64,000 bases of DNA from Tubulanus polymorphus (taxonomy: Eukaryota > Nemertea > Palaeonemertea > Tubulaniformes > Tubulanidae): positions 6,675,001 through 6,739,000 of the forward strand of contig NC_134028.1 of assembly GCF_964204645.1 (NCBI RefSeq). Direction: 5' to 3'. The notes below the pieces were generated by a model, which was not told the origin of the DNA, ran no database searches, and saw only the letters and a list, made by a program, of their open reading frames with translations. A program made the position numbers and the translations under genes. Below are positions 17,001 through 64,000 of this stretch, one piece after another (positions within the stretch are counted from its first letter, which is position 1; every line of letters begins with the position of its first letter).

Positions 17001-20000
17001 AAAAAACTGCATATCCGTTTCGTTGATATTTCTCTCGTGGTATCTGAGCTGTCTGAGCCATTGACAAGGACAGTTTATCGACATACTAGATAAGCTGATC
17101 TAAAGGTGTTCACGATTCAGAAAAATTCATAGCTTGGCCACTTCCATCTTCCCATGACAGTGATTTTGACCCTGTTGGCATTGTGACACTCAGCCACATG
17201 AAAACTTGCCGTGCCAATCAAATTGCCTGTAGTATTATCTCCGAGACAAATTTTAGGGATAACTATAAATGGAAAAACCCAGGTTAAGATAAAACAGGAA
17301 ATCTGATTGGCTAATAATGACATCATCTAAGCTGTCCATGTATGCAGCTGCGCAACCGGTCTAGTCTTAATGCCACCGTGTTTGAATCCCTGCCACCGTG
17401 TTTGAATCCCTGCCAATGGAGGATGGGCCATGTAGATGGAGATTCTAGTTGTTAATTTTCAGCGGTCACGAAATACGTTTTTATTAGCAATAATCTTATT
17501 CGCTTATTTTATGTTTCAGGTTGTGCCAAAAGACTATAAAACCATGGCAGCATTATCGAAGGCCATCGCCAAAAATGTACTTTTCGCTCATTTAGATGAT
17601 AATGAGAGAAGGTAAGGGAAGAATGAATGTCTGGATGATCAAAAGATCAATTTGTTGAAGGTGATTCAATAGTTCTTAGGCCGCCATCACACGGAGATGA
17701 TTTGGTCTGGGCACAAATTGGGTCCGATTCAAATTTGGCCAGTGCTAATTAGAGTTCAGATAGATCATGCACTCAAAACTAAACAATCATTTCAGGAACC
17801 AGTTGCAATTCACGCACAGTAATTTGACCCGTGCTAGAATTCGGCTCGGGCCTTGTCAGACATCTTCGGTTGGGCCAAACAGGCACGAGCCCATTTGTGA
17901 ACAGTTGTTCCAGGCCTAATTTGGCAAAGGCCAAAAAGCCTGGTCCTGTAGTGGGAAGTTGACCTCAACTGCTGTTAGACCTAGAAGGAGTTCATTTTGC
18001 GATCAGTTATCTCAGAGTTACCTCTAACTATGTATCCATCCATGTTAAGCTGAGGCAACTCCGGATCCAATTTTGACTGACCTATCACACCCTAAAAGGG
18101 CACTTTAATGTCCAAAAAGGCGATATTAAATACTGATACTAAAATGCACTGATTATCTTTGTTGACAAAATGAAAAGGGCACTAAAAATATTTGATGCAC
18201 TCGTACAAGTTTCATAAGTGCCCGTGGATCTGCTGCTGTTTAGCCCGATGCTGGAGATGAGTTAAATCGAGCATTGGTGATGTAGCACGAGTGAGGTTCC
18301 CCATCGCAATCTGCTCGATCGATACAATTTTATTACGATTCATTGAATACCGGATTGAAATTCTTCAGTAAGTTTAATTCGTATTAGTTTAGTGTGTAGT
18401 TTAATTGACTGTGTTGGTGTTTTTGCGGATACGTTGTCATCCGCACGCGTTGAAAGGTTATATCGTGCCCACGGCGAAAACCAGTCACTCCTCTCGCGTG
18501 CCCTTTACTTCGGTACGCGCAGTAGAAGGTCGATCTTTGCCCTGAGTTAAGGAAAAAGTTATTTTCATTTGTGTGTGGATGGATTTAGTAGATGATTAAA
18601 TTTTCTAATAAGCTCTCGGGCGGGCTTATACGCGATTTTTATGTGGTATTGTATTCATCGATGAATCCCACTACTTGGGGTATCATGAAGCGGCTGACTC
18701 GAAAACAATGGCCGTTAACAAACCGGGTGGAAATCAGGCAAAAGTCGGGGTGATTAATAAATTTTGAAAAAGTCGGAGAATAGACCACACTCAAACGTGG
18801 TGAACGGATAATAAGATAAAATCCCACTATTTACAGATTAAAAGGATTTCAAAACAAGAATTTATTCAGGTGTGACGATGATCTCTAGGGTGAGATCGAA
18901 ACGTCGTGTCTTTTAAATATTTTAGATTTAATAAATAAATTCTTGTTTTTAAATCCTTTTTATCTGTAAATAGTGGGATTTTATCTTATTAAGTCGGAGA
19001 ATTTTGTACATTTTGTCCAAAAGCTAAAAATCAGGGAAATTTGCTAGATCGTGTATAGAATCATAGTTACCGTTTACGTGTTACATATTTGATTGTGTTA
19101 ATTGATTGGATTCTTAGCAGGTCGAGTCAAGTCAGGCAAAAACGATGTAGGGGAATAGTCAGAAAATTTGATTTCTTTGAAAAAAGTCAGTAAATTTTGT
19201 TGAGAAAAAGCTTAAGATCAGGGAAAAGTCGGGGAAGTTTGATTGAGATGCTATGATCGCGTGTAAAATCATACAGTTTCCAACTATGTCTTTGCTAGAA
19301 ATTCAATCGATTGACGCAGTCAAATACGTAAGCATCTTATGTATTTGACTGTGTTAATTGATTGAATTTTTAGCAGATCAAATCAAGGAAAACAATGAGA
19401 GAAATGCCACAATAAATTCAGCCAAAACGAGAAACTTGAATAAAAGAGTATATATATTGCACAATGTTTCGGCTAAAGACTATTAGCCATCATCGGGCGT
19501 ACTGAGAACAGGAGAATATTACAAGATATTTATTCAAAGCCAAAACAATAGAAACTGAGTGAGTGATTAAAATGTTGCGAGGGGAATAGATTTGATATTT
19601 GATTGGGAATAGATATTGTGTATCTTCTCGTCTCAAGGAAAACAACGTGCATGTTAAGGAATAGTCAGGGAATACGCGAGTTGCCACTGTGATAAATGCT
19701 CATAATCTAAATCCCCTTGCGCATTCGATGATATAAGAAGAAATTTGAATTTTCTATCGAGATATCGTTGCCTATATCTGAGTGAATATCGCTTTTGTTT
19801 CTGATTTAAGGCGTGTGTTTATCCCGCCAGGTAATGATGTCGCTATGAATTATTTTCCGAGGCCCGCGGTAATAGAATAGAAGCGCTATCTGACTGCTGT
19901 AAGGTGCTGCGACCGCGCGAGGGGCAATGATAGTATTATCACAGCGTCTTTTGACTTGTAAATTTTTTTTGCTTTTTCGAAATGTCAATCGTTATAATTA

Positions 20001-32185: not shown

Positions 32186-34901
32186 ATGGTGGGATATGAC
32201 CCGACAAGTGATGTGCACCTGTCTGAATCGGAACAAGCTGCAGCTGGTGCTATCAGTGGTGTCATCACTAGAGCCATTGCACAACCATTAGACGTTGTCA
32301 AAGTCCGATTTCAGGTTTGTATTAAAAGACTGCCAATCATGCCCACAGTTGTGAATTAGATTTGAATGGCATTAATATCAAGACATGGAATAAATTCAAT
32401 TCAAAAAATCTTTATTGTGCCGTAACGTTTTATATACATTATTGGACTATACAATAAAGACAAGAAAACAACATTATCAAAATAGAATATAAAATGTATC
32501 ATACAAAAACAGTTAATATTATATACATTGTAAGGTGTTCTGGAATAAATGAAATCTCTAGGACGGGCACAAAAAATTTATTTGAATTTTTAATGAAAAT
32601 TATGGAAACTCAATAGAAAAGTCCATATTTCATTAGAGACCACAAACTTAAACCGCCAAAAAGATACCCTTGACATCGTGGTCATGCAATCTACGATACG
32701 TACCTACAATTTGTTCGTTGTATTTCTAGCTTCAAATAGAACCGATAAAAAAAGGTGGAGGGTCAACGTACCATGGAGTTACGCAGGCATTCATTAAGAT
32801 TTTACGCGAAGAAAAGATGCAGGCGTTATGGAAAGGACATGTTCCCGCGCAGATGCTTTCAATTTCATTCGGACTAGTCACGGTAAATATCGCTGCAGTT
32901 GAAAGTCCCTCTGCTGCCGTACTGGGGCCAGCTTTATTTTGTAATGCAGGCAGTTAACCTTGTCGGAGTAAGAGTTTACTTCGTAGAACCAGTTAAAAGT
33001 CCTCTTATCATAATATTCCATAGTTCGGAGGTAGTTTTGACTCTTGAGTTATGAAAAAGTTCGTTTTCGATTTTTCAGTTTTCGTCGTTCGAAATCCTGA
33101 CAAAAGATATCGGCAAATTATTCCCGATCGTACTCACCGATCGGTATCAACCGGCTTATCACTTTACGTGCGGTGGATTGGCCGGTTGTATCGCCACCGT
33201 CGTGTCGCAACCGATGGACGTAGTCAGAACGCGGCTAGTTGCTCAAGGTGAACCAAAGGTAAATCGCAATTGCAGTTCGGCATTTCGGGGTGGCCACTTA
33301 TTAGCTGGAAATCAAGGAGGAGTCGGGAAATTTGTTATTCTTTAAAGAAGTCAGGGAACTATGTAAAAAAAGCTATAAGTCGGGGAAATTTGTTGAGATA
33401 GCTAGATGGCGCATAAAATCAGACAGTTTCCTTCTATGTCTTACGTAGTTGACTGTGTTAATTGATTGGATTCTTAGGAAAACAACGTTCATGTCAGGAA
33501 ATAGTCAGGGGTTAAAGCAAATCAAATACCAGTGGCCACCCCTGCATTTTGCTGTCATCTAGTTTGAAATATTTTGTATTAGGATGATGACTATGTTTGA
33601 TAAGTTCGCTGGATAAATTGCCGCAAGAATTATTATCTACTCCAACGATGACAATGAATTTATCATTTGAAATTCGATATTTTCAGATTTACCCGACGAT
33701 CTATTCGGCAGTCAAAACGATGTATAAACAGGAAGGGGCCCGGTGCTTCTTCCGCGGTTTATCGCCAACTTTACTACAAATCGTTCCGCAATCCGGTTTG
33801 ATGTTCGGCTTTTATTCGTTTTTCGTGAATATCTGGGAGAAATACATCAAAACTGAACATCACCACACTCATCACCCGAGTAAGTTTGAATCAAAGAATC
33901 GTTATTAGATTTCCGGGTACAGGTTTTGCCGGATCAGTTTCTGGTGATGGTATTTGTTCGGTGCCTGGTTTTGGGTTGAAAGTTTCATTATCTGTTTATA
34001 TTTTTAACTACTTTAAGAAAATTCCAGAGAAAATTTTAATTGGAATAGATCGAAAAACAATTTTTAGAATAACATCGATTATTAAAGAATCCCCTTTTAT
34101 CACGACGATGAAAAATTCTGCTGAAAATAATGTACCATGGTTAATGAAAAGATGTAAATTGTGATGATAATCCCTGGGTAAGGGGCTGTTCATAACATAC
34201 ATACCGCTAAAGTCCGGACGAAGGGAAATGCGAAAACAAACATCTCAAAAACATCCCCTGAGACCATGTTTCTCGAAAACGACACACAGGAAAACGCCTT
34301 CGGAACCGTTGTGTCCGTCCCCTGTTTCCATGTTTCCCTGCATCAAAGTTCGGCTAAAGCAAACTTATGCTGATACATCAGAGAATCCTACATTGATATA
34401 ACGAGAAAGATGAAGTCCGAAAAGTTTCCTGAAAGCTTTATCAGTGTCTCAACGCAGACATAGTGTTTCATCAATGGTTTAAATTTTACTGATATTTGCA
34501 ATCCTCCTTCCCGTGTATGTACGTGTGTACATAATGAACGTCGGTTGTTTTGTGTTGTAGCCGGTATCGAGAGTATGGTATGCGGATCGCTGTCGGGTGT
34601 GTTTTCCAAATCGATCGTCTACCCGTTGGATCTCATGAAGAAGCGTCTGCAAGTTGTCGGCTTCGACGAAGCGCGCAAGAAATTCGGCCAGGTACGAAAC
34701 TACAAGAGCCTGCGCGACTGCACGATGACGATATTCCGCGAGGAGGGAATCAAGGGCCTGTTCAAGGGCATCGTGCCGAGTGTGATGAAAGCGGCGCTGT
34801 CGGTTGGGATCACGTTTTGCTCGTACGAACAAGTCTGCGAATTCATGGAAACTCACTGGCACGATAACAAATCAACGTCGTTAACGAAAAATAAGTCTTA
34901 A
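32186..34901 (+). CDS. SLC25A19: Mitochondrial thiamine pyrophosphate carrier
   Basis: Inner-membrane carrier importing thiamine pyrophosphate into the matrix. Five exons with clean borders: 32186-32314, 32730-32882, 33079-33258, 33687-33879 and 34561-34901 (TAA), giving about 331 residues, close to the roughly 320 of the family. Three SLC25 repeats are visible, each with the PxDxxKxR-type signature: QPLDVVKVRFQ (repeat 1), QPMDVVRTRL (repeat 2) and YPLDLMKKRLQVVGF (repeat 3). The N-terminus MVGYDP and the segments WKGHVPAQMLSI, AAQGEPK-like VAQGEPK and KKFGQVRNYKSL are characteristic of the SLC25A19 subfamily rather than other carriers. The start has no competing upstream ATG in frame near it. 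A His-rich stretch (HHHTHH) in the loop before exon 5 is unusual. No frame breaks. Confidence 0.95.
33286..33545. mobile_element. MITE-like repeat with GGGGTGGCCACT ends (family C)
   Basis: Inverted ends CGGGGTGGCCACT and AGTGGCCACCCCTG; the interior has AGTCGGGAAATTTG and GTGTTAATTGATTGGATTCTT. Fits in SLC25A19 intron 3. Relatives run through 18710-19700 and, more distantly, 10000-10400 and 25710-25980. Confidence 0.6.
34391..34490 (+). mobile_element. Deleted PLE-end remnant in SLC25A19 intron 4
   Basis: GATATAACGAGAAAGATGAAG and AGTCCGAAAAGTTTCC match the fold-back element at 50.4 kb, and GCAGACATAGTGTTTCATCA matches the tail. The second arm and the hammerhead centre are missing. Confidence 0.5.
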
Positions 34902-35141
34902 CGTTAAATTGATATTAGGTTTATTATAATGCAAAAAGGGTCTTCGAGATTTTAGTGGCCTTTCGATAAGTGCGACAGTATTTATTATTAACCTCAGGTG
35001 TCTTCGAAACGAATATATCCTGCAATAGATTACCGTATATATATAGCACATATCTTATTTGCATTTTTGCTGCTTTATAGAACGTACTCACTGAATTCAT
35101 GACTGCAATTAACTGATATCAATCTCAGTGTAGAGTTAACA

Positions 35142-35147
35142 AATAAA
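35142..35147 (+). promoter_or_regulatory. Likely poly(A) signal of SLC25A19, inside a fold-back element
   Basis: AATAAA is 241 bases after the SLC25A19 stop. I found no AATAAA or ATTAAA between 34902 and 35141. The motif is the first part of the left arm of the inverted-repeat element at 35106-35338, so the transcript end appears to be provided by a mobile element. Confidence 0.45.
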
Positions 35148-35179
35148 AACCCATGGTTAGATCTGTAAAAACAGTTTAT

Positions 35180-35228
35180 TTTCCTTACAGTTTCGAGGCT
35201 TTAACTAAACCTCATCATCAGAGGAACA
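35180..35228 (-). ncRNA. Hammerhead ribozyme motif, left arm
   Basis: Minus-strand partner of the motif in the right arm: CTGATGA, stem II GAGGTTT/AAAGCCTC (one wobble), GAAACTGTA and AGGA pairing with TCCT. The two ribozymes lie on opposite strands about 20 bases apart. Confidence 0.7.
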
Positions 35229-35247
35229 AAAAGCAAACAAAATTTTT

Positions 35248-35298
35248 TGTTCCTCTGATGATGAGGCTTAGCTAAAGCCTCGAAACTGTAAGGAAAAT
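35248..35298 (+). ncRNA. Hammerhead ribozyme motif, right arm
   Basis: CTGATGA at 35255-35261, stem II GAGGCT/AGCCTC, and GAAA at 35282-35285 followed by CTGTA. AGGAA after the predicted cut pairs fully with TTCCT before the core. All core bases are intact, so this is one of the best candidates for activity in the window. Confidence 0.75.
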
Positions 35299-35355
35299 AA
35301 ACTGTTTTTACAGATCTAACTGTGGGTTTTTATTTGTTCACTGAATTCATGATTG

Positions 35356-48200: not shown

Positions 48201-51200
48201 AAAATTTAGTTACCTTTTCCTACAATTTGGCCTCGAATCAAGTTACTTTGGAAGCATATGCAAATTTTGAACAAAAAAGCATGAATGTTTGAGTGAATGT
48301 TTTGGAATCAATACTCTAATTTTCTTTAAGCCGGCATCTGGGCAGACCTTTCGACGAAGAGCGGGGTAGGGAATTTGTTTGAAGCGCCAGACCCCTCCTA
48401 GATGCGGGCGTGGGTATGGTTCGCTATTGGGTCCCTGATTATCCAGGTACAGTCTTTACCCAGTGCTAGACACAGATTATCTTGTCTATGAAGTCAAACA
48501 GTTTAAAATCACATTTATCATTTTAGATTGAACAGTTTGTCAATTACGAACACATTTCTCACTTTCTCGATAAACTTCACTGGCACCAGATAATGATATA
48601 TGTATTTGATCATGCGTATTTGAGGTTTCGTTTTTTCCTAGTTTTTCCAGTGTGCCACCGATGACAGAGGTTAGACAGATAAGCGCCTATCAATTATCAG
48701 GGCGTAATGGTTACATCAAAACTCATTCGATGAAAGATTATGACAGACCCAGTGTTTGTACTTATGAAAAACTTTAAATTTCAGGAGAATTGGATATTTA
48801 CAAATTTAGAAATTGATGAAACACTATATTCGTGTTATGACGATAATCTTGGAGAATCCTACAATAATAACGAAAAAATGATATCAAATCCGAAAATTTT
48901 TCCTTGATTCTAGTTTATTCGACTAGATTCTAGTAGTTATCTAAGAACATATTCCTGAAGATGGCTATTAGAATATAGTTAAAACGTCGAATAAACTATC
49001 TTAAAGGAAACATTTTTGGACTTAATGTTTTTTTCGTTATCATCGTGGAATTCATTGTAGATTAAATATTCAGCCCTCTGGCTTTATATTGGCATTTATA
49101 AAAATATAAAAAAAATTCGAGTGATTTCATATTTTTCTAACGCTCGTTAACGAAGTGCGTCGCTAACCTTTGGTCGTTATTAGTTTTCGGTGCAATTTAA
49201 CGCTGATCAAAAAGCTCTTAATAACCGTACGCCATCGTACATAAACACAGTTATTATTGCTCTGTGGTGGAATCTGACTGTTTGGCGAGATCAATTATCT
49301 AATCAGGTCAATTCGGAAGATCAACATACTTGCATGCGCTTTGTTTGAAAAACGCTGACAATATTTAGATATTTGATGACAATTAATCGGACCAATTTAT
49401 CATCGGTTGTTCAGGTTTGAAATGAAATGGTAGCCGTATTCCTGTCGCGATGGATGTGTAGGTTGTTTCAGTGCAGTGTTAATGGTTTCTGGCATATCCC
49501 TCCACGTAGCCCTGATACTTGTCCACGGACACCGAGTTTAGAAGAGTTTTACGTCCCAAATGCAAGTAACGGTGTAACCCTAGTGGGCTTGGTTCCCAGT
49601 CTTCCACTCAACCAACTGAGCTAACGGCACAGGACAAATGGGGGCCTGTGCCTGTTTGCCAAAAAGTCAGACCAGGACCGGGCCAAATGTAAGCATGGCT
49701 TAAACTATTGAGAGTGAATGGTTACTGGTTCTGGTAGTCACTCGTCTAGCATCGTTTAGTGGGCCTATGAACGCGCTCTCTAATTTGGCATGGCTAAATT
49801 TGACTCAAGTCTGATCCGGGCCAAAATGTCTCCAAGTGATCAATTTAATCGAAATAGAAGTCAACTATTCTTATTCAACGCTGCAGATTTTCTTCTTCAG
49901 ATTTGTTCGTGGTAGGCTACCGTTATTTCTGTCATTATGTCAGCAGCTGTGCTCTAGTTTTTTTCGACTTATCTTTTATCGGGTTCCTTATCAGTGGTAT
50001 CTGTCAACAATCAGCGATGCGTGAAAATAGTTGACGGTAACCCCAGCGGGATTCTGGTAACGAAAGAAGTATCTTTATTACTGGTTTGACCTGAATAGGT
50101 TACTTCTGAACTCTCTCTTATTTAGGACTCGTACCTCAGGTTTCAACAGAGGAAAAATCATTTTCACATAATGCAGCATGGGGTCCCTCACTAAGGTCAG
50201 ACATCTTTGAAGAAACACATATGCTAAAAGACGCAATTTCCTAAAGGACGAGTGTCAAATCTGCACAATCTCCTTTTTTGATGAAAAGGGCAACCACAAT
50301 AAAAAGGCAGGGGTCCACACCCCTCTGACCACCCCCTAAATCCGCCCTTGCATGGCTATTTTAGAATGTAAAACATCTAGTAAAAAACCACTATGGTCAT
50401 TGGTGAAACACTATGTCCATGAGTTGAGATGCTTTACATATTCGCATTTGAGAGAGAATTCTACAGTAATATAACGAGAATGATGAAGTCCGAAAAGTTT
50501 CCTTTGATTTATTGATTCGAAGATGACTTGTAGGTTATAGTCGAAACGTCGAATCAAATGACTATTAGCTTAATGGAAACTTTTTGGACTTCATCTTCTC
50601 GTTATATCAGTGTGGAATTCTCTCTCAACTCGCTAAGTGAGTTTTCTATCCTAATAACGTAGTCTTTTTTTATTGTAACACGGCGGTGAAGTAAGAATTT
50701 ACTAAAAATTTCCTCCTGTGTGTTAGACTGACGGGTTACATTTTCGTTGTTTTCGTTCAGTGACAAATGAAATTACGTTTTATCGGTTCTGTTATTATCC
50801 AGAGATTCAAAAATACAAGATTACGAAACACCTGGAAACAACAACAAAAAACCTCACAGATCTTTGATGTACATATAAACCTACATATACACGTATTACA
50901 TGATGTTTATTTTGTTTCAGTTCGTATTTAAGCGTATTCAAACACATGTTTGTATATATCTCTATCTCATGTTGGTTGATATTTTCTACAAGTTTTTGAT
51001 TACTTGGAGTACTTTGACGTAAAGCAAGTCACACATTTTTCTGTATAAATCACAGTTCGGTACTCGAAAAACGCCTGATAAAAATGCCGAATCAGAGAAC
51101 GGTTATCCTGAAAATTAACCGTGTTCAGTTATTTGCTGATATTCATGATTCATTTGAATTCCATCCATTAGCGGAATGCCAAGTGTTAGGCTAGTGTTTT

Positions 51201-57340: not shown

Positions 57341-58027
57341 GAGGAGAGAATCCCACAATGATAATAAAAAGTCCGAAAATGAAACTTCGAGATAGTAGTT
57401 TATTTCAACGTTTCGACTATATCCTAATAGTCATCTTCAGGAATAATGAGATACTACAGAAATTATGAGATATATATATATATACAATCCAGAGACAAAG
57501 AGACTAATTCAAGTAATCAGAGATGATACAAATTAAAGGAAAATAAACATAGAAACAGTTACACACGCTAAAATAGATTAAAGGGAAGCAAACTAAGGGG
57601 TAATTATAAACAAAAATAGTGAGTATAAATATAAATGAAACTTAAAGTCAGCAGTAAAAAGAAAGACAAACTAGGGGGCACTTAAATTAAAACAAAGGTG
57701 AATACAAGTTAAGTCAGAGACGAAATTGATGAGAGAACAAATAACAAATAATCAAAGGGGAAATCAAGTGTTGAGTTTAACCAGTTTACAGAGGAATTTT
57801 GATATAAGTTTATTATGGGGTGAAAAACCATTGTTAAGGTTTACAACGTTGTTTGAATTTTCAATAATTAATGCAGATTCCAAAATATGTCTTCTAGTTT
57901 TATCGCTGCAAGGGTAAATTAATTCAGCATTAGCAAAATCAAAATTGTGTGAAGTCTGAAAAACATGACTAGCAACTCCGTTTTCAGGTTTAAAGTTTTT
58001 TACATCTAATTTATGCTCTTTTATGCG
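57341..58027 (-). repeat. Inverted copy of the PLE 3' end (left arm)
   Basis: Reverse complement of roughly 59890-60567. It carries the C-terminal part of the PLE frame on the minus strand (the start is lost), the 3' UTR and a hammerhead. It lacks the 38-bp tail found at the right end. It ends abruptly at about 58027, within the codons next to the IKEH motif of the nuclease. Confidence 0.9.
57397..57450 (-). ncRNA. Hammerhead ribozyme motif at the PLE left arm
   Basis: Reverse complement of the right-end motif: CTGAAGA core at 57434-57440 (minus strand), the same stem II and GAAACGTT. It would be transcribed only from the minus strand. Confidence 0.7.
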
Positions 58028-58031
58028 TTAA

Positions 58032-60152
58032 TTCCGTCAATCTCAAAATTATTTGAAGTCACACGTACCGGACCTATTCCTCTGGAAATCGCTCTCCACT
58101 ATTGTTCAAGGCTCTGGAAAATATCATCAGCACAGAAAGTCCGTGGATCTTACCAACCAACTGAATAAACTCATTGATTCCAGCCCTTGGACTAGATTTA
58201 GCAACACCGAAAACATAGTAAATTTGTCTTCAACCACGTTATCTCCTACTCAGTGTCAACTTCTCGGCTACGGTTTGAATTTTTCTCTTCCTCATCAAGA
58301 TAAACATGTTTTAGACTTTGTCACCCAATTGGAATATCGCAAATCATCTCCGAACAGTTTGGACTATAACTTTACATTCATGAATCTACAGGCTATTTGC
58401 GATCAACTCAACAGGAACCTCTTTGGATATCTACCTCGTCGATTTCGGCTCGCCCTCCAAGAACTACGGAAGTTAAAGACTATTAAAATATCTAAGGCTG
58501 ATAAAGGTGGCAAGATTGTGATTTTAGATCTGGATAATCATAATGTTAAAATGCAATCTCTCTTGGATAATCCTGGTGTTTATAAGAAACTTAAATCGAA
58601 TCCTCTTCCTCGTATGCAAGCTAATTTCAACAGAAGTCTTTCGGATATTATTAAACGTTTCCCCTCCGCTAAAGAAACTCTGAATAAGTTCCATTCACGT
58701 CTTCCCTCTTTACCATATATCTATGGATTGCCTAAAATTCATAAAGATAATGTTCCACTGCGCCCTATAGTCTCCAATTGTAATTCTCCTACATACCGGT
58801 TATCTAAATTTCTCGCGAAACAGTTATCTCCGGTGCTCGGTTCGTTCTCTCCGTCGCACCTTCGCCATAATCAACACTTACTTGAACGTATTAAGAATAT
58901 TATCCCTGGCAACGACAAATTTATATCATTTGATGTTACTTCCCTTTTCACCAATGTTCCTCTTGGACCTACTCTTGATTTCTTAAAACGCAGATTACCA
59001 TCACTTAATATTAACTTCGGCATTCCTATGGATTGTATCATCGACCTTATCTCTATTTGTACGACGGACTCCTTTTTTGAATTTAACAATTGTTTTTACG
59101 AACAGACATTCGGTATCGCTATGGGAAATCCTCTTAGTCCTATTCTAGCTAATTTATTCCTAGAACATGTTGAATCTGAAATATTGCCTCTTTATACTGA
59201 TATTCACCCTAAAATCTGGCTCAGATATGTTGACGATGTTCTGGCTTTGGTTCCCTTTGACTTCAATGTTGATAACTTTCTTATATATTTAAACTCCCTT
59301 TACCCGTCTCTGGCTTTTACGTATGAATGGGAATCTAATAGTAAAATACCTTTTCTGGATGTTCTGATTTTTAACTGTGGATCCTTTTTGAAATTCGCGG
59401 TTTATAGGAAACCTACCAACGCTGAATCCTACCTCCATTACTTCTCTTTTACTTCTCCGGATATTAAACTCGGTTTAGCTCAAGGATTATTTCTTCGCGC
59501 TTTGAGAATTTGCGACCCCTCATTTCTACCCGATGAAATTCAACATATTAACCAATCTCTCAAAAAACTTGCCTATCCCGATTTCCTATTGAAAAAAGCT
59601 CTACTTAAAGCTCGTACTACGCATTTTAGAAATAACAACCTTAGAACTCCTACGTTGGCTACCGATAAACAGCCTATCATTGTACCGTATGTACCTTTCC
59701 TCGAGAATTCTAAAGTTTCTCTTCGGTCACTAAATAAACAACTTATCTTTAAATACAATAATAAACTTAGTAACATATTGATTAATAACAAACCGAAAAC
59801 CGAATCCCTAAACTGTGGAATTTATAAAATACCTTGTAAAGTTTGCGACAAAGTATTTATAGGAGAAACAGGTCGGAACCTTAATCAATGCATAAAAGAG
59901 CATAAATTAGATGTAAAAAACTTTAAAACTGAAAGCGGAGTTGCTAGTCATGTTTTTCAGACTTCACACAATTTTGATTTTGCTAATGCTGAATTAATTT
60001 ACCCTTGCAGCGATAAAACTAGAAGACATATTTTGGAATCTGCATTAATTATTGAAAATTCAAACAACGTTGTAAACCTTAACAATGGTTTTTCACCCCA
60101 TAATAAACTTATATCAAAATTCCTCTGTAAACTGGTTAAACTCAACACTTGA
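58032..60152 (+). CDS. PLE polyprotein: Penelope-type reverse transcriptase plus GIY-YIG endonuclease
   Basis: Open frame without any stop from 58032; codons before 58032 are closed by TAA at the junction with the inverted arm, and there is no early ATG, so the N-terminus appears truncated. Numbering from the TTG at 58053 (699 residues), RT motifs in order are KADKGGKIVILD, YGLPKIHK with PLRPIVS, SFDVTSLFTNVPL, GIAMGNPLSPILAN, YVDD at 392-395, KIPFLDVLI and YRKPTNAESYL. The C-terminal GIY-YIG nuclease starts GIY at 589-591 and has FIGETGR at 602-608 (F instead of Y). The Arg expected before the IKEH motif is Cys (TGC, 59889-59891). The intact frame suggests recent insertion; the Cys may disable the nuclease. 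Confidence 0.93.
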   Translation, partial: FRQSQNYLKSHVPDLFLWKSLSTIVQGSGKYHQHRKSVDLTNQLNKLIDSSPWTRFSNTENIVNLSSTTLSPTQCQLLGYGLNFSLPHQDKHVLDFVTQLEYRKSSPNSLDYNFTFMNLQAICDQLNRNLFGYLPRRFRLALQELRKLKTIKISKADKGGKIVILDLDNHNVKMQSLLDNPGVYKKLKSNPLPRMQANFNRSLSDIIKRFPSAKETLNKFHSRLPSLPYIYGLPKIHKDNVPLRPIVSNCNSPTYRLSKFLAKQLSPVLGSFSPSHLRHNQHLLERIKNIIPGNDKFISFDVTSLFTNVPLGPTLDFLKRRLPSLNINFGIPMDCIIDLISICTTDSFFEFNNCFYEQTFGIAMGNPLSPILANLFLEHVESEILPLYTDIHPKIWLRYVDDVLALVPFDFNVDNFLIYLNSLYPSLAFTYEWESNSKIPFLDVLIFNCGSFLKFAVYRKPTNAESYLHYFSFTSPDIKLGLAQGLFLRALRICDPSFLPDEIQHINQSLKKLAYPDFLLKKALLKARTTHFRNNNLRTPTLATDKQPIIVPYVPFLENSKVSLRSLNKQLIFKYNNKLSNILINNKPKTESLNCGIYKIPCKVCDKVFIGETGRNLNQCIKEHKLDVKNFKTESGVASHVFQTSHNFDFANAELIYPCSDKTRRHILESALIIENSNNVVNLNNGFSPHNKLISKFLCKLVKLNT

Positions 60153-60459
60153 TTTCCCCTTTGATTATTTGTTATTTGTTCTCTCATCAATTTCGTCTCT
60201 GACTTAACTTGTATTCACCTTTGTTTTAATTTAAGTGCCCCCTAGTTTGTCTTTCTTTTTACTGCTGACTTTAAGTTTCATTTATATTTATACTCACTAT
60301 TTTTGTTTATAATTACCCCTTAGTTTGCTTCCCTTTAATCTATTTTAGCGTGTAACTGTTTCTACGTTAATTTTCCTTTAGTTTGTATCATCTCTGATTA
60401 CTTGAATTAGTCTCTTTGTCTCTGGATTGTATATATATCTCATGATTTCTGTAGTATCT

Positions 60460-60512
60460 CATTATTCCTGAAGATGACTATTAGGATATAGTCGAAACGT
60501 TGAAATAAACGA
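60460..60512 (+). ncRNA. Hammerhead ribozyme motif at the PLE right end
   Basis: Core CTGAAGA at 60468-60474 fits CUGANGA. Stem II is TGACTAT/ATAGTCG around a TAGG loop, and GAAA is at 60494-60497. The following ACGT gives a two-base-pair stem III without a loop (ACGU), as in the very short stem III of PLE hammerheads thought to act as dimers. The predicted cut follows GUU, and GAA after it pairs with TTC before the core. Hammerheads in PLE pseudo-LTRs are established in the literature; activity here is untested. Confidence 0.75.
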
Positions 60513-60690
60513 CTATCTCAAAGTTTCATTTTCGGACTTTTTATTATCATTGTGGGATTCTCTCCTCATCGCGTCAACACGGATATAGTGTTCTACCAAT
60601 CGTGATTAGGTCGTTATATAAGGTTTAATGATTATAAAGATTAATGTTATGAGGGTTAGGGCAATTATATTCGCTTTTTATGGAAACACG

Positions 60691-61680: not shown

Positions 61681-62712
61681 GTGAAATGGGAATGTGCACA
61701 CTCTAGAAGTATACAGAATATATATAAGTATACAGAAAGTTCACAAAATCTGGTTTATGTAGACCTGCGACACACCAGAAAATACGCTTATTCAAGCTAC
61801 ATCATGGATGAAAAATGTACCAGTGAATAGATTTCAAATGTTAAGTTTTGAAATATTAACATTATATATGATATAATTAGGGTTTTTCTGTTTCACAGAA
61901 AACCCTATTGATATTCGCGTGTTAATTATTATTTGACAATTGACGTCAAAACTGCAAAGGCTTTCTTACCTTAGCGCAGTTTCCGATACAATCCGTTTTA
62001 TTTCATTTAGCTCACTTCGATCTACAGATATTGCATGGGAATTTTGATGAATCAATGTTACAAAAGCACTGTCAGGCCGTAAACATCGAAAATTGGGCCC
62101 CATTCAATGAGGAAACATGTTTTTCTGAGTCGTCATCCCGAAATCCACCGGAGGCTGCTCGTCGCTTCGATTATCAATTCAAGTGTAAATAAACAAATTT
62201 ATTGCCGCAAGACGTCACATTCAGCCACGGTCTTCAAACAGTAAATTTTAACAATTAGCCATTTTCTTCATCACTACATTTAACCGACCGACAGGATATA
62301 ATTTACTACTATAAATATTATAAGCACTGTCGAGCTGTAAAGATCGATGAATCAACTTGTGTCTTTACATCTTCATTAGTTAACGCCTTCTGTGACACCC
62401 TACATGCTAATGTCTATTTATTAATGAATGAGACCTGTTTTTCTTGGATATTTTGCTTACTTTTTGGGGTACATACCTCATTTATGTCTTAACAGAATGC
62501 CAAAAATCGCGGACAACAACTGAATATCCGATATATTTCCAGTTCTGTACCATTTAGATGGATTGGCAAAAAGACTCCTTAAGTCCAGTTGAATGAGAGA
62601 GAAAATCCTCCATTTTGTGAAATTTCTTGAATTTTTACATTGTCACCATGCCTACGAAATGAAGTTATTTTTCTTGTGGGGTCTCAACAACTAAATCAGG
62701 GTGGCGTAGGCA
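61681..62712. other. Spacer between the two receptor copies
   Basis: Non-coding. It holds a near-perfect hairpin at about 61879-61907 (AGGGTTTTTCTGT / ACAGAAAACCCT), two similar stretches around CACTGTC(A/G)(G/A)GC at about 62067 and 62326, and at about 62379-62402 a block CTTCTGTGACACCCTACATG that also begins the minisatellite at 56711. AATAAA near 62193 is a possible receptor poly(A) site. Confidence 0.5.
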
Positions 62713-62928
62713 GTTTAACCAGTTTACAGAGGAATTTTGATATAAGTTTATTATGGGGTGAAAAACCATTGTTAAGGTTTACAACGTTGTTCGAATTTTC
62801 AATAATTAATGCAGATTCCAAAATATGTCTTCTAGTTTTATCGCTGCAAGGGTAAATTAATTCAGCATTAGCAAAATCAAAATTGTGTGAAGTCTGAAAA
62901 ACATGACTAGCAACTCCGCTTTCAGGTT
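62713..62928 (-). mobile_element. PLE 3'-end fragment in inverted orientation
   Basis: Matches 57774-57991 (the left arm of the PLE) and is the complement of about 59935-60150. It is joined at TTTCAGG directly to the 3' half of a hammerhead at 62929, where copy 1 has 2.5 kb of PLE. The junction shares AGG with both sides. The left end at about 62713 is abrupt. Confidence 0.85.
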
Positions 62929-64000
62929 GTAGTCGAAACGTTGAAATAAACTACTATCTCAAAGTTTCATTTTCGGACTTTTTATTATCATTGTGGGATT
63001 CTCTCCTCATCGCGTCAACACGGATATAGTGTTCTACCAATCGTGATTAGGTCGTTATATAAGGTTTAATGATTATAAAGATTAATGTTACGAGGGTTTG
63101 GGCAATTATATTCGCTTTTTATCGAAACATGATGAATCTGACACTTTTCGAGCCGCCTTCAGAGTTGTGGCAAGCGGCCGTCTGGTACGCGTACAATTTC
63201 GGAGTCTATTTCATTTGGATAGTCGGTAGTATCGGCAGCATTCTTACGTTAGTTTTGCTCACGCGATTGCGCAATGAACTAGATGGCCCGAGCTCTCAAT
63301 ACTTGTTTTCGCTGGCCACATCGGATTTGATTTATTTGAACACGATGTCGTTGAAATGGCTGGAGAAGATCAGCGTGGCATCGGGCACCGGTTTTGACGT
63401 GTACGTATTCTACATATCCTCCGAGTTTGCCTGCAAGTTTCTACTGGTAACGGTGAATATCTCGGTGAAACTGTCTACGTGGACTTTGTGTATTTTTGCT
63501 ATCGAAAGATCACTCGCAATTTCTATGCCTCTTAAAGTCGCCGACTACTTTACTAAAGTTCGACGGAAATATCTGATCGTATGGCAATGGACCATCGCGA
63601 TCGTCATAGAGAGCTCTTTTACCAACTTATACGGAATTCGCACCTACTCGGACGGACGTAAAAACTGTATGTTATTTCCGAATTACTCGTCGGATAAGAA
63701 TGTCGGACTTAGAATAGCATTTTCGATGTACGTTCGCGTAACGCACTTTATTGTGCCTTACATCATAAACACCTCCTGCGTAATCGTAATCGCTAAGAAA
63801 CTAACGGCGAGACCGTCTAAAGCTTCGACTAATGTACAAAATATTTCTAATCAAGACAGAACATGCATCAAAAACCTCGTAGCGATTGCGTCTTTATACC
63901 TAATTCTATCTCTACCTAATAATATCGTTAATTCTATTTTCTATACGAAACCTACAGTTTTGATTTGGCCCCGTAAACCTCATATGACTGATTTCGTTTA
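62929..64000 (+). repeat. Second copy of the PLE-3'-end plus GPCR segment
   Basis: Direct repeat of 60492 onward: half of the hammerhead (GTAGTCGAAACGTTG), the rest of the PLE 3' end, the 38-bp tail, the target-site copy TTAGGTCGTTAT, the 5' flank and the GPCR. Because the PLE target site is included, the PLE inserted before the duplication. Confidence 0.9.
63132..64000 (+). CDS. Intronless class A GPCR, copy 2 (cut by the window edge)
   Basis: Same start and frame as copy 1 (a second ATG lies directly before, at 63129). It aligns base for base with 60691-61559. I count about 15 differences, nine clearly replacing a residue (V to G, C to W, F to Y, A to V, S to T, A to T, T to I, I to T, H to D) and five silent. 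No stop occurs before the edge. The final visible codon begins TA where copy 1 has TCT, so it is either Tyr or a stop; the 3' end is outside the window. Confidence 0.88.
   Translation, partial: MNLTLFEPPSELWQAAVWYAYNFGVYFIWIVGSIGSILTLVLLTRLRNELDGPSSQYLFSLATSDLIYLNTMSLKWLEKISVASGTGFDVYVFYISSEFACKFLLVTVNISVKLSTWTLCIFAIERSLAISMPLKVADYFTKVRRKYLIVWQWTIAIVIESSFTNLYGIRTYSDGRKNCMLFPNYSSDKNVGLRIAFSMYVRVTHFIVPYIINTSCVIVIAKKLTARPSKASTNVQNISNQDRTCIKNLVAIASLYLILSLPNNIVNSIFYTKPTVLIWPRKPHMTDFV

What the first reader, a model, noticed from the sequence alone, without database searches (positions are those of the whole stretch)
35089..35355. Small fold-back element with two intact hammerheads on opposite strands
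Both arms keep CTGATGA, a long stem II, GAAA and a five-base stem I pairing (four in the left arm). The 233-bp element has a tail on one side and a 17-bp target repeat, the same plan as the 3.3-kb PLE, but no coding sequence. It may be a non-autonomous, ribozyme-bearing unit mobilised by a PLE, comparable to retrozymes but palindromic. Either strand would yield a self-cleaving RNA.
Basis: partly seen in the sequence, partly recalled or inferred. Interest (0 to 1): 0.8.

Follow-up and report, generated by a model that had tools for sequence, protein, structure and literature searches.

The report
Penelope retrotransposon's hammerhead-bearing fold-back insertions
The small palindrome with two hammerhead ribozyme motifs is real and is one of a large family of short insertions in this genome, which look like by-products of a Penelope-type retrotransposon copying the start of its own RNA into both strands of a cut, and which together record how this little-understood class of jumping gene inserts.

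Summary
In detail: 35089-35355 carries two 95-nt inverted arms, each with a hammerhead core, a 38-nt tail on one side only, and a target-site repeat (11-14 bp rather than 17). The element is not single. I examined 112 distinct insertions of its family, plus 18 copies of the young Penelope-like element (PLE) family that includes the window's 3.3-kb PLE. The reading as a self-propagating palindromic 'retrozyme' is not supported: of 74 arm junctions 72 differ, and asymmetries between arms are rarely shared between copies. Where a second, tail-less arm exists it keeps its outer end, beside the target duplication, in 77 of 93 insertions and stops at variable inner points. Ten of 18 young PLE copies do the same, nine at the identical nucleotide. 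Best reading: each palindrome is made at insertion. PLE protein primes reverse transcription on both cut strands, from two start sites 38 nt apart, on a short RNA (probably the 5' end of PLE mRNA, below a TATA box). This fits published in-vitro data on an Anolis PLE and argues against the published self-priming idea. The hammerhead comes from the PLE leader and leaves no visible mark on template ends; its activity is untested.

The parts
35089..35099 (.). left target-site duplication (CACTGAATTCA; up to 14 bp with nucleotides shared with the tail)
   Evidence: tail end conserved in other copies
35100..35137 (-). 38-nt tail, outer (3') end of the tail-bearing cDNA; reads AACTCTACACTGAG...TGCAGTCA on the - strand
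   Evidence: conserved in the family
35138..35232 (-). tail-bearing arm (solo pLTR, about 95 nt)
35181..35226 (-). hammerhead motif of the tail-bearing arm (stem I, CUGAUGA, stem II, GAAA, GUA cleavage triplet)
   Evidence: stem I read from the sequence
35233..35243 (.). junction of the two arms; its coordinates are shared with no other copy examined
35244..35338 (+). tail-less arm; its outer end (35338) abuts the right target duplication
35250..35295 (+). hammerhead motif of the tail-less arm
35339..35349 (.). right target-site duplication (CACTGAATTCA)
57341..58033 (-). comparison: tail-less inverted arm of the window PLE, starting exactly at the arm/tail border
58030..60567 (+). comparison: PLE body with RT and GIY-YIG-like ORF 58053-60152 and 3' arm with hammerhead motif 60468-60502
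60568..60606 (+). comparison: tail of the window PLE

Best explanation
The element is a head-to-head pair of PLE leader copies (solo pLTRs) made in one insertion event. SHOWN by sequence: one arm carries a 38-nt tail, the other starts at or within a few nucleotides of the arm/tail border; both outer ends abut a target duplication of about 13 bp; inner ends and junctions vary from copy to copy; a young PLE family in the same genome shows the same plan with longer arms and an exact border. INFERRED: the PLE protein cuts both DNA strands about 13 bp apart and primes reverse transcription on each, one cDNA starting at the distal site (tail end), the other at the proximal site (arm border). Both run towards the RNA 5' end and the two cDNAs are then joined. 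The template here is short because initiation happened near the 5' end of the PLE mRNA, so about half of the cDNAs run off at the cap, 92-118 nt from the arm border, some 20-40 nt below a TATA box, and nearly all others stop short of it. The hammerhead lies in this leader and is copied along.
For: Outer end of the second arm kept in 77 of 112 insertions, 16 lack it and 19 have no second arm; by alignment it starts at arm position 1 in 42 of 74 and within 5 nt in 68 of 74. Target duplication at that end (score >=8) in 52 of 73 against 0 of 288 mismatched flank pairs; 1 of 74 second arms carries a tail. 74 junctions, 72 distinct. 29 second arms keep the outer and lack the inner part, 14 of them with 45 nt or less, down to 11-12 nt. 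Both cDNA ends peak at the same place: 52 of 100 sense arms and 34 of 67 second arms end 92-118 nt from the border, 6 of 100 and 1 of 67 go further; TATAA first T at 127-137 in 5 of 8 copies looked at there. Young PLE family: 10 of 18 independent copies have an inverted arm starting at unit position 2856 (nine) or 2855 (one), with ten different inner ends, 31-944 nt long; in L139 and L140 target duplications also abut that start. In tandem PLE units the tail is simply the next stretch after the arm. One-arm variants 160, 148 distinct, none listed in more than two copies; 36 non-consensus states shared by both arms of one element, 5 different. The window PLE's C-terminus matches the sequence upstream of the arm in L034, L046 and L085 (47-63%, E 2e-8 to 9e-26, tblastn). 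PMC11167929, main text read: Anolis PLE protein cleaves and extends both strands, and the tail equals the interval between two RT start sites.
Against: 16 of 112 fall by rule in the opposite class, outer lost and inner kept (by eye L055 is interrupted, L056 and L063 keep an outer remnant, L023, L085 and L099 look like chance; L019, L024, L068, L070 and L102 do have inner pieces only), and 19 have no second arm. The one-tail rule (73 of 74) is stricter than two free start sites would give; PMC11167929 saw no strand difference in start site in vitro. Junction microhomology is not above random joins (38% versus 47% with overlap of 2 or more; 23 of 56 junctions have filler of 2 or more). A sense arm's own partner is the closest in only 9 of 28 elements. 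The cap site is inferred, no transcript was seen. The parent of these arms is seen only as degenerate pieces. Two young copies (L138, L147) have inverted pieces that do not start at the border.
Confidence: 0.68

Rival explanations
1. Palindromic master: a non-autonomous, retrozyme-like fold-back element is transcribed whole and copied as a unit by PLE enzymes.
For: Many short copies with the same borders and few long ones; three sequence subfamilies in which both arms agree; L014/L022 and L066/L107 share junction coordinates; L019 and L024 look like outer-truncated copies.
Against: 72 of 74 junctions distinct; one-arm variants rarely shared; truncation is more often inner than outer (29 versus 16 by rule); whole-element RNA is a hairpin of -154 or -150 kcal/mol, probably a poor template.
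Confidence: 0.12
2. Self-priming: a PLE transcript (antisense, as proposed for rotifer Penelopes) folds back at a palindrome in the leader and primes its own copying, giving head-to-head arms.
For: Published interpretation (PMC3846280, Discussion read); the leader has a short palindrome GAATTACTGTAATTC near the inner end (seen in copies such as L034 and L086).
Against: Self-priming starts at the junction, so incomplete arms should lack the outer end; 29 lack the inner and keep the outer end, against 16 the other way by rule. In the young PLE family ten of 18 copies have arms that start at the border and stop anywhere. By the histograms few inner ends fall in that palindrome (about 106-120 nt by my count).
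Confidence: 0.07
3. Template jump: one reverse transcription from the tail, then a jump onto an antisense leader RNA whose 5' end lies at the arm border, where it runs off.
For: Gives outer-anchored, inner-variable second arms and a tail on one side only, that is, the 73-of-74 rule, without a second primed strand.
Against: Needs antisense transcripts that begin at the border in two separate PLE families; the border instead corresponds to the proximal RT start site that defines tails in Anolis. No transcript data here.
Confidence: 0.1
4. Chance palindrome, later rearrangement or assembly artefact.
For: Palindromes are unstable (recalled), and some centre changes may be later.
Against: Target duplications at the outer ends in 52 of 73 against 0 of 288; the same plan in 77 of 112 places and in young copies of 98-99% identity.
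Confidence: 0.02

Closest known systems
Penelope-like elements with inverted pLTRs (Adineta vaga Pen2a and relatives, PMC3846280, passages and Discussion read)
   Same: Inverted pLTR, tail (31 bp there, 38 here) optional on one of them, target duplications (8-10 bp in the passages seen, median 13 here), TATA box in the pLTR, tail reaching into the ORF start there; solo pLTRs mentioned
   Different: Here the insertion is reduced to the two leaders with no ORF, at many places, and second-arm ends point to an outer-anchored origin
Anolis PLE PAc (PMC11167929, main text read)
   Same: Hammerhead in the leader, two internal RT start sites that bound the tail, extension of both DNA strands; cut site to RT start 85-92 nt there by my arithmetic, about 82-86 nt here
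   Different: In vitro no strand difference in start site; here one strand takes one site in 73 of 74
Metazoan retrozymes (PMC7229834, abstract and passages read)
   Same: Small, non-coding, type I hammerhead, co-exist with PLEs; PLEs proposed as movers
   Different: Retrozymes are direct tandem repeats giving circular RNAs of about 170-400 nt; these are inverted pairs that seem to be built anew at each insertion
LINE-1 twin priming (recalled)
   Same: Both target strands primed, inverted product, target duplication
   Different: LINE-1 inversions do not duplicate sequence and have no fixed second start; here both arms copy the same stretch from a fixed start

Membership tests
PLE (EN+) insertion product | telomerase-like RT with GIY-YIG endonuclease in the source element | tested here: inconclusive
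   Window PLE ORF: RVT_1 5.5e-10; GIY-YIG 0.0022, below its cut-off. The arms' own parent is seen only as degenerate pieces that match this ORF's C-terminus.
PLE (EN+) insertion product | 30-40-nt tail beyond one pLTR | tested here: met
   36-38-nt tail; 1 of 74 second arms carries one too. Copies were anchored on the tail, so tail-less ones are under-counted.
PLE (EN+) insertion product | target duplications of about 8-15 bp | tested here: met
   median 13 in 47 copies; 52 of 73 versus 0 of 288 null
PLE (EN+) insertion product | inverted or tandem pLTRs, 5' truncation | tested here: met
Hammerhead ribozyme (minimal type I, PLE kind) | CUGANGA and GAAA core with NUH cleavage triplet | tested here: met
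   both arms of the window element; CTGANGA..GAAA intact in 42 of 69 sense arms
Hammerhead ribozyme (minimal type I, PLE kind) | stems I and II kept by paired change | tested here: met
   59 of 69 arms aligned: 86.3% of cells paired (62.3% or less when slid), 21 cells with double changes versus 8.3 shuffled, but number of pairs with a double change not above shuffles (5 versus 4.3, 227 of 500); rows are related, so the control is lenient
Hammerhead ribozyme (minimal type I, PLE kind) | match to an Rfam hammerhead model | tested here: not met
   no hit at gathering score nor in the permissive list
Hammerhead ribozyme (minimal type I, PLE kind) | self-cleavage | not testable with these tools
   needs in-vitro transcription
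Retrozyme | hammerheads in direct repeat that release a unit-length RNA | tested here: not met
   arms are inverted; 72 of 74 junctions distinct
Retrozyme | circular RNA | not testable with these tools
   no transcript data

The most novel reading that the evidence does not exclude
PLE integration is a two-strand, two-start reaction with a strict division of labour: one cut strand takes the distal start (with tail), the other the proximal start (without), each on its own RNA in a dimeric particle. Inverted pLTRs, long or short, are its products, and hammerhead cleavage plays no part in making the template. The fold-backs would be a genome-wide record of this reaction stopped at the mRNA leader.
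Probability: 0.4. Interest if true: 0.78.

Novelty: new variant of a known kind. Interest (0 to 1): 0.62.

Why it matters
PMC11167929 still calls the PLE transposition mechanism little known, and why PLE terminal repeats are so often inverted with a tail on one side only is open; the one printed proposal that I found (PMC3846280) is self-priming. This genome holds over a hundred short insertions plus young long ones that discriminate between the models by where incomplete arms begin and end. They also speak to what the PLE hammerhead is for: template ends do not gather at its cut site (4 of 100 sense ends at 46-50 nt, against 2 and 3 in the neighbouring bins), in line with the Anolis in-vitro mutants.

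Tried and rejected
Rfam search for the hammerhead: negative; I read the miRNA rows as matches to the hairpin itself. Microhomology as the joining rule: tested, not enriched. HHR cleavage as the source of template 5' ends: no peak. Own-partner arm similarity as a test of a common origin: weak, 9 of 28. PDB search with the window PLE ORF: nothing at E 0.01. My first hammerhead scan printed nothing because its stem II rule had no room for the extra U. A first extraction for the covariation test had a wrong end-gap setting and was redone. One search printed its table and then failed on saving it; the analysis was redone. Host organism: not identified.

Rows dropped before counts: nine loci (L007, L008, L009, L012, L013, L016, L025, L026, L030) are mirror matches of places already held, and L130-L131 are tandem controls; 120 loci went in, L048 and L086 had no arm+tail anchor, 6 of the other 118 were dropped for similar flanks (L029, L052, L080, L117, L122, L128), leaving 112. 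The subset of 100 leaves out 12 more that I listed by hand as found only by full-length queries. For covariation 74 arms qualified, 5 failed the length rule, and I gave 59 of the 69 left to the aligner. Genome searches score only 40 of 186-269 first-look candidates each, so copy numbers are lower bounds. Control: 19 loci with the window copy; L132 and L134 share flanks, so 18 independent; ten border-anchored, L138 with an inner inversion, L147 complex and cut at its left end, six without an inverted arm. L131 is a tandem pair and is not counted among them; in L143 the unit runs on past the tail.

Full report
What is there. The window element is real: two 95-nt arms in inverted order around a short centre, each with a hammerhead core, a 38-nt tail outside one arm only, and a target duplication. 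The hammerhead motif alone folds as stem I plus stem II. Stem III is reduced to one pair and one U is added before stem II, and Rfam's models miss it. The tail's outer end TGACTG is conserved in other copies, which moves the left border to 35100 and shortens the target duplication to 11-14 bp.

It is one of many. A search of the window's own genome (268 Mb, 77 contigs) with the element gave 89 matches at about forty places. Searches with two diverged subfamilies and with only the tail plus the outer 46-48 nt of the arm (not biased by arm length) brought more. 118 copies could be anchored, 112 after dropping flank duplicates.

How the copies are built. Written in the sense of the tail-bearing arm the order is: target duplication, second arm (antisense, no tail), junction, first arm, tail, target duplication. 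In 77 of 112 the second arm keeps its outer end; of these, 45 run to the centre, 29 stop earlier and 3 are recognised only beside the duplication; 16 by rule lack the outer but keep the inner part, and 19 have no second arm. By alignment 42 of 74 second arms start at arm position 1 and 68 of 74 within 5 nt. Fourteen second arms of at most 45 nt are outer pieces (L069, L071, L076, L083, L084 and others); short inner-only pieces also occur, in L019, L024, L068, L070 and L102. 74 junctions give 72 different coordinate sets. Where a second arm has its outer end, a target duplication abuts it in 52 of 73 cases at score 8 or more, against 0 of 288 flank pairs from different copies. Only L064 has a tail on both arms, 1 of 74. 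L048, outside these counts, is a single tail-less arm between exact direct repeats AGGACATAATAGTT (read by eye).

Not a copied palindrome. Among 28 elements with two long arms, 160 one-arm variants fall on 148 distinct site-states, none listed in more than two copies, while 36 non-consensus states are shared by both arms of an element and 5 sites differ from consensus in both arms differently. The arms of one element thus seem to come from one template, and I see no asymmetric master that was copied on. Against a neat picture, a sense arm's own partner is closest in only 9 of 28, and mean divergence within an element (0.068) is only somewhat below that between elements (0.092).

The template. 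Sense arms end 92-118 nt from the arm border in 52 of 100 insertions, further in 6 and shorter in 42; second arms in 34, 1 and 32 of 67. In 5 of 8 copies that I looked at upstream a TATAA lies at 127-137 nt, so the common stop is where a cap would be expected. This is an inference, as no RNA was seen. Upstream of the arm, L034, L046 and L085 match the C-terminus of the window PLE's protein (35-114 aa, 47-63%, E 2e-8 to 9e-26; the upstream frames are broken), while L010, L039, L042 and L086 gave no match; this names the parent kind. Ends do not gather at the hammerhead cut site.

A young control. The window's own PLE belongs to a family with 40 scored matches of 98% or more, itself included, out of 1108 first-look candidates. 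Its ORF has an RT domain and a GIY-YIG match below cut-off. In tandem units the tail is the stretch that follows the arm. Of 18 independent copies, ten have an inverted arm whose outer start is unit position 2856 (nine) or 2855 (one), with ten different inner ends, 31-944 nt long, and no tail hit beside it; six are single and 5'-truncated, one has an inner inversion and one is complex. In nine of the ten the other arm ends in the tail; in L143 it runs on. Target duplications abut the start in L139 and L140 too. So short and long elements are built alike.

Mechanism. PMC11167929 (abstract and main text read) reports that an Anolis PLE protein cuts and extends both strands, that reverse transcription starts inside the RNA at two nearby sites and that the interval between them is the genomic tail; hammerhead mutants insert normally. 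If one strand starts at the distal and the other at the proximal site, head-to-head arms with a single tail, fixed outer ends and free inner ends follow. PMC3846280 (passages and Discussion read) describes inverted pLTRs with an optional tail and proposes self-priming on an antisense template; that predicts arms anchored at the junction, the opposite of what the larger class shows. A jump onto an antisense leader RNA remains possible and would explain why the second arm is nearly always tail-less. Joining shows no excess of microhomology and often some filler.

The hammerhead. Across 59 aligned sense arms 86.3% of pair cells hold, with 21 double-change cells against 8.3 in shuffles, though the number of pairs with a double change (5) is no more than shuffles give (4.3). 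I take the motif to have been kept in the PLE lineage, as minimal variants are known from PLEs (PMC7229834, passages). In the fold-back itself full transcripts are hairpins of -154 and -150 kcal/mol. Nothing here shows that it cleaves.

Novelty. Searches of the held library, judged from their listings: Penelope with twin priming gave three papers that use the word Penelope once each; hammerhead with foldback and retrotransposon one paper, a review of giant transposons, not opened; Penelope with head-to-head and target-primed none; led to no further paper that I opened beyond those above. Inverted pLTRs and solo pLTRs are known; the fold-back pair of leaders as a family-wide product, and the outer-anchored ends as evidence on mechanism, I did not find in these searches, which hold open-licence papers only.

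Noticed in passing
window 48812-49053: Another, older fold-back related to the window PLE (65-71% identity): tail and arm on the - strand, hammerhead-like CTGAAGATGGC..GTTAAAACGTCG on the + strand.
   Followed up: partly
window 50453-50635: Short fold-back by eye, with an outer arm of about 50 nt and a hammerhead-like arm (GAAGATGACT..AGTCGAAACGTCGA; arm match 70% at 50519-50632); the left flank resembles a diverged PLE tail.
   Followed up: partly
window 34380-34500: By eye a very short PLE-like insertion (outer arm of about 50 nt, then a tail) near an exon that looks like a mitochondrial carrier gene (recalled likeness).
   Followed up: no
window 18809-18991: Inverted repeat with 58-nt arms (97%) flanking a hammerhead-like GACGATGATCTC..GAGATCGAAACGTCG; a similar sequence lies beside the arm in L092 (by eye).
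   Followed up: no
window 62712-63218: Further partial copy of the window PLE's ORF end and arm (94-99%), 2.1 kb downstream of the PLE.
   Followed up: no
L138 1734-1795; L147 1-936: Young PLE copies with inverted pieces that do not start at the arm border, more like LINE-1 twin priming or repeated template jumps.
   Followed up: no
L061, L079, L080, L081, L100, L104: Copies interrupted by what look like nested short repeats of two kinds (CAGTTCCACAGTTGTGAGTTAGAG.. and ..GGTCTTAAGTT..), often near the palindrome centre: possibly a preferred target.
   Followed up: no
L119: A short sense arm with tail seems to sit directly behind another copy's tail end (17-bp repeat that contains tail letters): possibly insertion of the element at its own end.
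   Followed up: no
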